Assembly: GCA_027858915.1 (NCBI GenBank)
Contig: JAQIBT010000141.1
Coordinates: 1 to 54,478 of the forward strand
DNA: 54,478 bases
Direction of reading: 5' to 3'
DNA from: Salinisphaera sp.
GTDB lineage: Bacteria; Pseudomonadota; Gammaproteobacteria; Nevskiales; Salinisphaeraceae
Shown here: positions 44,539 to 46,048 of the stretch, piece after piece
Numbering within the stretch: the stretch's first letter is position 1
Layout of the letters: the number at the start of each line of letters is the position of its first letter
The notes under the pieces: model-generated
Seen by the model: the letters and a program-made list of their open reading frames with translations, nothing else
The model's database searches: none
Told to the model about the DNA's origin: nothing
Position numbers and translations under genes: made by a program

Positions 44539-45174
44539 TCAGATTGAGCGGAGCACGCCAACAGCGATACCTTCGACATTGAGCGAATCGCGTGTGGGAT
44601 CGAGGTGGATGTCCGCGAACGCTGGATTGTCCGCGGCGAGGCGAATTCCGCTGCCGTCGCGGTAAAAGCGTTTGACGGTGACCTCGTCGTCGAGCCGGAA
44701 GACAGCAATCTGGCCGACCCGCAGGTCGGTCGTGCTTTTTACGCCGAGCAGATCGCCGTCAAGTATGCCGGCGCCGATCATGCTGTCGCCATGGACGATC
44801 AGCAGGTAATCAGGCGGCGACGAAAACACACTGGGATCAATATGCAGGCGGCGTGACACGTGTTCGACTGCCTGGATCGGTACGCCCGCCGCCACGCGCC
44901 CGATCACGGCCAGGCCGGAATCGCCGGATTCATCGTTGTCGGCTACGAACGACAGTGCATCGGCATCCACCAGGCGGATACCGCGGCTGCGCCGGGCACC
45001 CAACTCGATCAGCCCTTTTCTATGCAGCGTCTGCAGGTGCGCCTGTGCGGCGTTGGCCGAGGCAAAGCCGAGCGCGTTCGCGATTTCGGCGCGCGTCGGC
45101 GGCGCGCCAGTGTCGATCATCGACTCGCGGATGAAATCGTAGACGCGCTGCTGTTTTCTGGTGAGCTTTTCCAC
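44539..45174 (-). CDS. lexA: LexA repressor
   Basis: SOS repressor that self-cleaves when bound to RecA filaments. The GTG at 45174 gives 211 residues starting MEKLTRKQQRVYDFI, aligning with family N-termini; the frame is open upstream to 45243 but that part has no counterpart. The winged helix includes PPTRAEIANALGFAS. The cleavage site is A96-G97 (GRVAAGVP), with catalytic Ser131 (HGDSM) and Lys168 (VTVKRF). No Shine-Dalgarno precedes the GTG; instead the SOS box ends one base before it. It is convergent with the OmpA-domain gene. Confidence 0.95.
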   Translation of the reverse strand: MEKLTRKQQRVYDFIRESMIDTGAPPTRAEIANALGFASANAAQAHLQTLHRKGLIELGARRSRGIRLVDADALSFVADNDESGDSGLAVIGRVAAGVPIQAVEHVSRRLHIDPSVFSSPPDYLLIVHGDSMIGAGILDGDLLGVKSTTDLRVGQIAVFRLDDEVTVKRFYRDGSGIRLAADNPAFADIHLDPTRDSLNVEGIAVGVLRSI

Positions 45175-45175
45175 G

Positions 45176-45191
45176 TTGTAAATATATGCAG
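45176..45191 (-). promoter_or_regulatory. LexA (SOS) box overlapping the lexA -10
   Basis: On the lexA strand it reads CTGCATATATTTACAA, close to the gammaproteobacterial consensus CTG-N10-CAG with an AT-alternating core. It occupies the 16 bases ending one base before the GTG start. The likely -10 is inside it. Confidence 0.85.
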
Positions 45192-45209
45192 TTATTCGAT
45201 TGCAGTAAA
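45181..45209 (-). promoter_or_regulatory. lexA promoter giving an apparently leaderless mRNA
   Basis: On the - strand TTTACT (45209-45204, 4 of 6) is followed by a 17-base spacer and TATATT (45186-45181, 5 of 6). A start 7 bases after the -10 falls on the first base of the GTG codon at 45174. The promoter is fully covered by the SOS box at its -10. Confidence 0.55.
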
Positions 45210-45236
45210 GGAACCTCTGCACAATCGAAGTTCTGT

Positions 45237-45265
45237 TTGACATTGCACTGCAACAATTTTAATCT
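45237..45265 (+). promoter_or_regulatory. Candidate promoter of the phasin gene
   Basis: A perfect TTGACA (45237-45242), a 17-base spacer and TAATCT (45260-45265, 3 of 6). The predicted start near 45272 leaves about 45 bases before the ATG. The arms of an inverted repeat lie in the spacer and on the start site. Confidence 0.5.
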
Positions 45266-45283
45266 CAGCGTTGTTGCATTGCA
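45244..45283. promoter_or_regulatory. Inverted repeat straddling the phasin promoter
   Basis: TGCACTGCAACAA (45244-45256) and TTGTTGCATTGCA (45271-45283) match as inverted copies at 12 of 13 positions, 14 bases apart. TGC-rich repeats are typical targets of PhaR, the PHA-responsive repressor of phasin genes. The adjacent GCACCAAATCAA (45281-45292) fits a PhaR motif recalled from Ralstonia. The regulator's identity is inference. Confidence 0.55.
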
Positions 45284-45316
45284 CCAAATCAACTTCGACG
45301 TACGAGATAATCGATC

Positions 45317-46048
45317 ATGAAAATCCAGTCTGTAGTCTCTGATGTTCGCCAGCGTCTCGAAACAGCCGCCCGTCCCTACCAGGGCGCGTTCAAGGCCTAT
45401 GTCGACGCGCAGCGTAAAGCTCTTACCGTGGTCACGCGAAGCAGCCAGTCGCTGGCCAATACGGAAATCGGCGCGGCCAAGAATATTTTCGCCTCGGCGC
45501 GGGCCAGCTTTGATCGTGCTCGAAACGACGGCCTGCTCCAGCTCGCCAGCAAGCCGCGCAGCTATCTGCCGCGCAGTCGCCCGCAGTTGATCGAGGCTTA
45601 CAAGGTGACTATTGATCTGCTGATGAAGACCGGCAACGAACTCAACGATGTCGTATCGAACGGCTACCGCAGCGTGCGCGGTGAATTGGCCGGCCAGCCG
45701 GCGCTCGAAAATTCGACCAATGAGGCAACCGAGTCCGACGGCCCGGCGCGCAAAACCGCTGCGCGTCGCAAGACGGCCACGGCATCGACCGCGGCCAAGG
45801 CGACGGTCAAAAAATCGACGACTGCGCGCAAGAAGACCGCAGGCGCCGCCAAATCAGCCGACACAAAGACAACCAGCGCCAGCAAGTCACCGACCAGCAA
45901 GACCGCAGCAACCAAGAAGCCGGCAACCCCGCGCAAGCGCGCGGCGACGTCCAAAGCCGCTACGGCTGCGACGACCACTGAGGCGAGCAAGACAAACGAT
46001 GCTGACAGCAGCGCGGCCAGCAAACCGACCACCGGTAGCGATAGCTGA
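45317..46048 (+). CDS. PhaF-like phasin with Lys/Ala-rich histone-like tail
   Basis: The 243-residue product has an N-terminal helical phasin-like region (about 1-125), amphipathic and without membrane anchor. It then has a tail (about 140-243) of Lys, Ala, Thr and Ser repeats such as AARRKTATASTAAKATVKKS and TSKTAATKKPATPRKRAA, like histone H1 or the AlgP/PhaF tails. In Pseudomonas, PhaF binds PHA granules through the phasin part and the nucleoid through the tail, so granules segregate at division. No PHA synthase is in the window, so wax or other lipid inclusions are an alternative. Divergent from lexA; ends at a terminator. Confidence 0.75.
   Translation: MKIQSVVSDVRQRLETAARPYQGAFKAYVDAQRKALTVVTRSSQSLANTEIGAAKNIFASARASFDRARNDGLLQLASKPRSYLPRSRPQLIEAYKVTIDLLMKTGNELNDVVSNGYRSVRGELAGQPALENSTNEATESDGPARKTAARRKTATASTAAKATVKKSTTARKKTAGAAKSADTKTTSASKSPTSKTAATKKPATPRKRAATSKAATAATTTEASKTNDADSSAASKPTTGSDS

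What the first reader, a model, noticed from the sequence alone, without database searches (positions are those of the whole stretch)
45174..45316. lexA appears leaderless, with the SOS box on the -10 and divergent from an operator-controlled phasin
The conserved LexA start is a GTG with no Shine-Dalgarno. The 16-bp SOS box ends one base before it, and the best promoter (TTTACT-17-TATATT) would start transcription on the GTG itself. Immediately divergent is a perfect TTGACA for the phasin gene, only 27 bases from the lexA -35. The compact region could join SOS repair to storage-granule control. The geometry is seen in the sequence; leaderless translation and cross-talk are inference.
Basis: partly seen in the sequence, partly recalled or inferred. 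Interest (0 to 1): 0.7.

Follow-up and report, generated by a model that had tools for sequence, protein, structure and literature searches.

The report
Leaderless lexA fused to its operator
In Salinisphaera bacteria the gene for the DNA-damage repressor LexA appears to begin its message directly at the start codon, with the repressor's own binding site touching that codon, and two other conserved damage-response genes are built in nearly the same way.

Summary
The geometry is real. lexA (44539-45174, minus) starts at GTG 45174 without a Shine-Dalgarno sequence. Its SOS box (45191-45176) ends one base before the start, and TTTACT-17-TATATT predicts transcription from the G of GTG. In all 13 genus genomes with a lexA match (14 searched) the box ends exactly 1 nt before ATG/GTG. 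S. japonica has no in-frame start further upstream, so the upstream ATG (45243) is rejected. Two further recurrent LexA-type targets share the design: imuA (box 2 nt before ATG, 14 of 14 genomes) and a radical-SAM/UDG gene (1-2 nt, 13 of 13 loci). No recA box was found in 13 loci. A few boxes in single genomes lie 8-32 nt from a start. The 1-nt abutment at lexA recurs in other lineages (Polynucleobacter, two other families of the order, four families of a class sample). Leaderless lexA is on record in M. tuberculosis, so this is a new variant; I found no report from Proteobacteria. The divergent gene is a probable phasin with two PhaR-type sites. It is missing from 3 of the 13 genomes while the lexA unit is unchanged, so SOS-storage cross-talk is not supported. 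No transcript was mapped: leaderless translation is inferred.

The parts
44539..45174 (-). lexA, GTG start at 45174, 211 aa
   Evidence: TIGR00498 195.9 bits (cut-off 110.95); PF01726 and PF00717
45176..45191 (-). SOS box CTGCATATATTTACAA, ends 1 nt before GTG
   Evidence: same position in 13 of 13 genus loci
45181..45186 (-). -10 TATATT inside the SOS box; predicted transcription start = G of GTG
   Evidence: best of a scan over -60..0
45204..45209 (-). -35 TTTACT, 17 bp from the -10
   Evidence: TTTACG in five genus relatives, TTGC-type in the others
45237..45242 (+). -35 TTGACA of the divergent gene
   Evidence: TTGACA, TTGACG or TTGACT in the nine genus loci with the gene that were scanned and in G015
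45260..45265 (+). -10 TAATCT of the divergent gene, spacing 17
45241..45255 (.). PhaR-type site 1 (fits TG[N]TGC[N]3GCAA on the minus strand), over the -35 end and spacer of the phasin-like gene
   Evidence: motif as published for PhbF
45272..45286 (.). PhaR-type site 2, just after the -10 of the phasin-like gene
45317..46048 (+). phasin-like gene (MKIQ...; K/A-rich tail), divergent from lexA
   Evidence: relatives match PF09361 below cut-off
45241..45243 (-). upstream in-frame ATG, rejected as the LexA start
   Evidence: no upstream start at all in L005

Best explanation
[quoted passage not shown] LexA dimers on the box block the -10, so LexA represses itself by promoter occlusion. When LexA cleaves itself after DNA damage, RNA polymerase enters and makes a leaderless mRNA that ribosomes must take up without a Shine-Dalgarno. 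In Salinisphaera the two other LexA-type targets that recur across the genus (imuA and the radical-SAM/UDG gene) have the same operator-start fusion, so the conserved core of the SOS regulon looks leaderless or nearly so. Shown: box, start codon, distances, conservation, lack of Shine-Dalgarno. Inferred: transcription start, LexA binding, leaderless translation. The divergent phasin-like gene is a separate unit, probably repressed by PhaR.
For: Box ends 1 nt before the start in 13 of 13 genus lexA loci, no Shine-Dalgarno word in any. No upstream in-frame start in L005; codon-phase conservation (0.86/0.87/0.59) begins at the start codon, while stretches upstream of the box show 0.41-0.56 without it. 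The promoter scan puts the start point on the start codon in 12 of 12 genus loci tested (L012 left out as near-copy of L011), against 1 of 83 non-abutting class lexA loci, 4 of 83 within one base. -35 match at 16-18 bp: mean 2.60 against 1.62 in shuffles, 0 of 2000 reach it. imuA: box + 2 nt + ATG in 14 of 14 although the first residues differ. Radical-SAM/UDG gene: gap 1 in 8 and 2 in 5 of 13 loci. The same genomes do use Shine-Dalgarno: 9 of 10 phasin-like genes and 3 of 5 ompA-like genes, lexA 0 of 12.
Against: No mapped 5' ends. Any AT-rich SOS box supplies a -10-like hexamer, so the scan is not independent of the box; at single loci 1-15% of shuffles reach the observed -35 score, and the loci are related. 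The window and two relatives (near-copies of each other) start with GTG, which is inefficient on leaderless mRNA in E. coli (PMC9031893 passages). In the nearest other genus (G015) my rule finds no box at lexA; by eye a degenerate one ends 3 nt away. For the radical-SAM/UDG gene the best scan gives -1 to -3 in 12 of 13 and -7 in one, for imuA -1 in 14 of 14, so these may have a leader of a few bases. A box in G012 lies 8 nt before a 364-aa frame, others 12-32 nt, so not every LexA-type box in the genus abuts a start.
Confidence: 0.8

Rival explanations
1. lexA mRNA has a leader from a promoter further upstream (or read-through from folE2, which lies upstream on the same strand), the box acts as a roadblock, and translation is Shine-Dalgarno-independent on the AT-rich stretch before the start codon.
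For: Lack of a Shine-Dalgarno word is common: 57 of 90 class lexA loci lack a 4-nt match. In three genomes folE2 lies directly upstream of lexA.
Against: Sequence upstream of -36 is little conserved and the neighbour differs between species. A -35 and a -10 sit at promoter spacing. The exact 1-nt distance has no reason under this model.
Confidence: 0.15
2. LexA starts upstream at ATG 45243 or another in-frame codon, and the box lies inside the coding region.
For: The frame is open upstream in the window to -87, with ATG at -69 and GTG at -48; most relatives also have some in-frame start codon upstream.
Against: L005 has no start between the stop at -45 and the ATG; L007 has only a TTG next to its stop; no codon-phase pattern upstream.
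Confidence: 0.02
3. The divergent arrangement couples SOS repair to storage-granule control: LexA, PhaR or RNA polymerase at one promoter affects the other.
For: Short distance between the two -35s, 13-29 bp where scanned. The divergent pair is kept in 10 of 13 genus genomes with lexA and in G015.
Against: G001, G009 and G013 have no match to the phasin-like protein anywhere and no strong PhaR-type site by lexA, with the lexA unit unchanged. The two operators do not overlap.
Confidence: 0.1

Closest known systems
Leaderless lexA of Mycobacterium tuberculosis (PMC2897130, passages read)
   Same: LexA start codon coincides with the transcription start
   Different: Actinobacterium with about 500 leaderless genes (PMC4117421 passage) and another operator type (recalled); here a beta/gamma-type box ends 1 nt from the start, in a genus whose phasin-like genes mostly have Shine-Dalgarno words
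E. coli lexA and other canonical beta/gamma SOS promoters (recalled; class sample)
   Same: LexA family, CTG-N10-CAG operator over the promoter, autorepression
   Different: In the class sample 68 of 75 lexA loci with a box have the last box 4-86 nt from the start; 5 have it at 1 nt
Leaderless mRNA of the lambda cI repressor (recalled, not tested here)
   Same: Another self-cleaving S24-type repressor read from a leaderless mRNA
   Different: Phage gene, other operators, activated by its own product
Deinococcus radiation/desiccation motif (PMC8072749, passages)
   Same: Damage-response operators close to or over the transcription start; a title in its reference list reports leaderless mRNAs as important in D. 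deserti
   Different: DdrO/IrrE, not LexA
PhaR/PhbF-repressed phasin promoters (PMC3206438, passages)
   Same: TG[N]TGC[N]3GCAA-type sites; two PhaR sites at the R. eutropha phaP promoter are reported there
   Different: Phasin-like protein here is below the family cut-offs; binding untested

Membership tests
LexA (TIGR00498) | full-length match above the curated cut-off | tested here: met
   195.9 bits against 110.95, residues 1-210
LexA (TIGR00498) | LexA DNA-binding domain plus S24 peptidase | tested here: met
   PF01726 81.9 bits, PF00717 109.5 bits
LexA (TIGR00498) | self-cleavage stimulated by RecA | not testable with these tools
   Ala-Gly, Ser and Lys motifs visible in the translation (assignment recalled); no assay
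beta/gamma-type SOS box | CTG-N10-CAG palindrome | tested here: inconclusive
   exact CTG...CAG in 8 of 13 genus lexA loci; the window's box ends CAA
leaderless gene | no Shine-Dalgarno before the start | tested here: met
   no word of 4 nt in 13 of 13 genus lexA loci
leaderless gene | transcription starts at the start codon | not testable with these tools
   predicted only, 12 of 12 genus loci tested
phasin (PF09361 / TIGR01841) | match above the curated cut-off | tested here: not met
   window protein: no phasin match; three relatives 18.5-19.6 bits against 24.9, one of them TIGR01841 18.8 against 30.2
PhaR operator | TG[N]TGC[N]3GCAA-type motif at the promoter | tested here: met
PhaR operator | bound by PhaR | not testable with these tools
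   a PhaR gene is present (PF07879 104.4 bits), but the motif was not found near phaR or the genome's own Phasin_2 gene

The most novel reading that the evidence does not exclude
Salinisphaera runs an SOS response whose conserved core (lexA, imuA, radical-SAM/UDG gene) is made of leaderless messages with operator, -10 and start codon fused, while recA stands outside it. The damage response would then depend on the 70S/leaderless route of translation. lexA has been locked into the same 1-nt fusion repeatedly in Proteobacteria.
Probability: 0.5. Interest if true: 0.75.

Novelty: new variant of a known kind. Interest (0 to 1): 0.6.

Why it matters
It gives a small natural set of stress genes in a gammaproteobacterium that appear leaderless beside ordinary Shine-Dalgarno genes in the same genomes, so the question of what leaderless translation is for can be tested on one regulon. 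It also suggests that an operator can fix the place of a start codon: the first residues of ImuA differ between species, yet the box-to-ATG distance does not change.

Tried and rejected
Upstream start ATG 45243: rejected. SOS-phasin coupling: not supported. Wider LexA regulon: the genus scan (one mismatch to one consensus) is too narrow to be complete; it misses the lexA boxes of the window and of L007-L010, and recN, uvrA, sulA and the like were not looked at one by one. Besides lexA, imuA and the radical-SAM/UDG gene its hits were single or shared by two or three genomes. Of these, G012 (also a hit in G011, not fetched) has a box 8 nt before a 364-aa frame, G007 12 nt, G009 20 nt and G012 32 nt before a frame: not abutting. 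recA: no box by my rule within about 200 nt in the 13 loci that printed; the split recA of G006 and a second RecA match of G008 were not tested. Abutment of other SOS genes in other lineages: in one Polynucleobacter genome and G216 (f150) recA- and umuD-like frames (named by eye) have boxes 7-60 nt away, so there only lexA abuts; G019 has a box 7 nt before another frame (three of the seven genomes gave no hit). Permissive flag: 45 of 220 rows; L016, L079, L094, L176, L186, L239 and L244 were dropped because the abutting codon is unlikely to be the start, and L031 and L032 are the same loci as L004 and L005. Tree of 71 LexA proteins: at least 5 label changes, but starred branches do not rule out one origin. 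f126 and f7 abut but the scan puts the start at -2 and -24. Phasin-like alignment against the genome's own Phasin_2 protein: weak, probability 28. PhaR-type motif genome-wide with one mismatch: 57 hits against 37 for the control. Papers: searches showed no description of leaderless lexA in Proteobacteria, but mostly as listings; papers on other groups listed there (Leptospira, Corynebacterium, Streptomyces start maps) were not opened. One search gave nothing useful; one search was a listing, of which PMC9031893 was opened.

Full report
Setting. lexA is 44539-45174 on the minus strand, TIGR00498 195.9 bits, and the only match in its genome.

Observation. The minus-strand order is -35 (45209-45204), -10 (45186-45181, inside the box), six bases, GTG.

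Genus comparison. lexA was found in 13 of the 14 genomes of the genus (the 14th, G010, is 81% complete). In all 13 the box ends exactly one base before ATG (10) or GTG (3), and no Shine-Dalgarno word of 4 nt is present. Eight have CTGGATATATTTACAG, three CTGGATATCCTTACAC, one CTGGATATTCTTACAA, and the window CTGCATATATTTACAA. In S. japonica (L005) no start codon lies between the in-frame stop at -45 and the ATG, and L007 has only a TTG next to its stop; the other loci do have some in-frame start upstream. Conservation by codon phase is 0.86/0.87/0.59 inside the gene and 0.41-0.56 without that pattern upstream of the box (L012, a near-copy of L011, left out). So the start is the abutting codon.

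Promoter. [quoted passage not shown] Among 83 class lexA loci without an abutting box the same scan gives exactly 0 once and within one base of it 4 times. The -10 comes with the AT-rich box, so the -35 is the more independent sign: its mean score is 2.60 against 1.62 in shuffled upstream sequence and none of 2000 shuffles reaches it, though at single loci 1-15% do and the loci are related.

Other targets. A scan of 14 genus genomes for strong boxes and reading of the sites gave two further recurrent targets. imuA (NF033429, 165.3 bits against 150 in the window's genome) has CTGTATATAAATACAG (one substitution in G009) + 2 nt + ATG in 14 of 14 genomes, although the first residues of ImuA differ; predicted start -1 in all. 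The radical-SAM/uracil-DNA-glycosylase gene (TIGR03916 356.8 bits against 343.5) has a box 1 nt (8 loci) or 2 nt (5 loci) before ATG in 13 of 13; six of the boxes have one changed arm base. Its best predicted starts are -1 to -3 in 12 loci and -7 in one. Not all boxes abut: G012 has one 8 nt before a 364-aa frame (a like hit in G011 was not fetched), and boxes 12, 20 and 32 nt before frames occur in G007, G009 and G012. The scan is narrow (it misses the window's own lexA box), so weaker targets may exist. recA has no box by my rule within about 200 nt in the 13 loci tested. In the same genomes a Shine-Dalgarno word precedes 9 of 10 phasin-like genes and 3 of 5 ompA-like genes, and 0 of 12 lexA (L010's lexA was missed by that script's filter), so the lack is not general. 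The window's own phasin-like gene is the one without.

Other lineages. From 232 class genomes (144 with a match over the cut-off) I took the 93 best matches to PF01726. Ninety were analysed as a class sample (30 loci, 60 regions); the other three (G000, G002, G020) belong to the window's genus or order. Of the 90, 15 have no box by my rule. Among the other 75 the distance from the last box to the start is 0 in none, 1 in five (families f126 twice, f150, f154, f7), 2 in one, 3 in one, 4 in three; the rest lie at 5-86. Outside the sample the 1-nt abutment is found in f4 (3 of 4 genomes; not G023), f5 (3 of 4; G020 has 2 nt), MAG SJ34 (L055) and seven closely similar Polynucleobacter loci. In most of these the scan again puts the start on the ATG: f4 3 of 3, f5 3 of 3, L055, f150, f154, Polynucleobacter 5 of 7 with the other two second best; not f126 (-2, two loci) or f7 (-24). 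A tree of 71 LexA proteins needs at least five changes of the label, but its backbone is weak and one origin is not excluded. In one Polynucleobacter genome and G216 (f150) recA- and umuD-like frames have boxes 7-60 nt from the start, so there only lexA abuts.

The divergent gene. It is kept beside lexA in 10 of the 13 genus genomes with lexA and in G015 of another genus. G001, G009 and G013 have no match to it anywhere in the genome; neither has G010, which also has no lexA match. The window protein has no phasin match in Pfam or NCBIfam; three relatives match Phasin_2 at 18.5-19.6 bits, below the 24.9 cut-off, so 'phasin' is probable only. Two palindromes fit the PhbF/PhaR motif TG[N]TGC[N]3GCAA, the second with its last base changed: 45241-45255 over the -35 end and spacer, and 45272-45286 after the -10. 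The best such site scores 12-13 of 13 in the 10 genomes with the gene and in G015, and 7-10 in the three without it. The genome has PhaR, but the motif was not found near phaR or the genome's own Phasin_2 gene. In the three genomes lexA keeps box, start and -35, so the two units are separable.

How it most likely works. LexA bound to the box covers the -10, and the start codon is about the first transcribed codon. Repression is by occlusion. On damage the message is leaderless and must be translated without a Shine-Dalgarno. Steps not shown: transcription start, LexA binding, translation route. A doubt is the GTG of the window and of two near-identical relatives, since GUG is poor on leaderless messages in E. 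coli (PMC9031893 passages).

Known and new. M. tuberculosis LexA starts at its transcription start (PMC2897130 passages). Caulobacter has 375 leaderless mRNAs (PMC4117421 passages; 'lexA' does not occur in its main text). My searches (mostly seen as listings) showed no report of leaderless lexA in Proteobacteria or of an SOS regulon with operators fused to start codons; the library lacks most subscription papers. Hence: new variant of a known kind.

Noticed in passing
L253-L265 (recA loci of the genus): recA has no SOS box by my rule within about 200 nt in 13 loci, so RecA may not be LexA-controlled in Salinisphaera.
   Followed up: partly
L249:203-1498 (G000:C44): The radical-SAM repair protein of the window's genome matches the front half of TIGR03916 and then a UdgX-type UDG domain in one 431-aa frame. 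Frames of relatives have about the same length; whether they share the domains was not checked.
   Followed up: no
L225 and L226 (lexA of family f16): A palindrome like TTAGTAGTATTACTACTAA (Xanthomonas type, name recalled) ends 2 nt before the lexA ATG: a different operator in nearly the same place.
   Followed up: no
L247, G000:C50:63363-63378: A near-perfect SOS box (TTGTATATATATACAG) lies in the same 3-kb locus as a frame that looks by eye like a phage terminase, possibly a LexA-controlled prophage.
   Followed up: no
L313, L319, L322 (G013, G009, G010): CTGTATGTAAATACAG is shared by three genomes without an obvious abutting gene.
   Followed up: no
L315, G012:C16:29936-29951: A box CTGTTTATTTATACAG lies 8 nt before a 364-aa frame (MPHRPTHHKTRGALTN...), and a similar-looking frame in G019 (L348) has a box 7 nt before it: a possible further LexA target, not abutting.
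   Followed up: no
class sample, for example L222 (G201): 15 of 90 class lexA loci show no box by my rule; other operator types were not sought.
   Followed up: no
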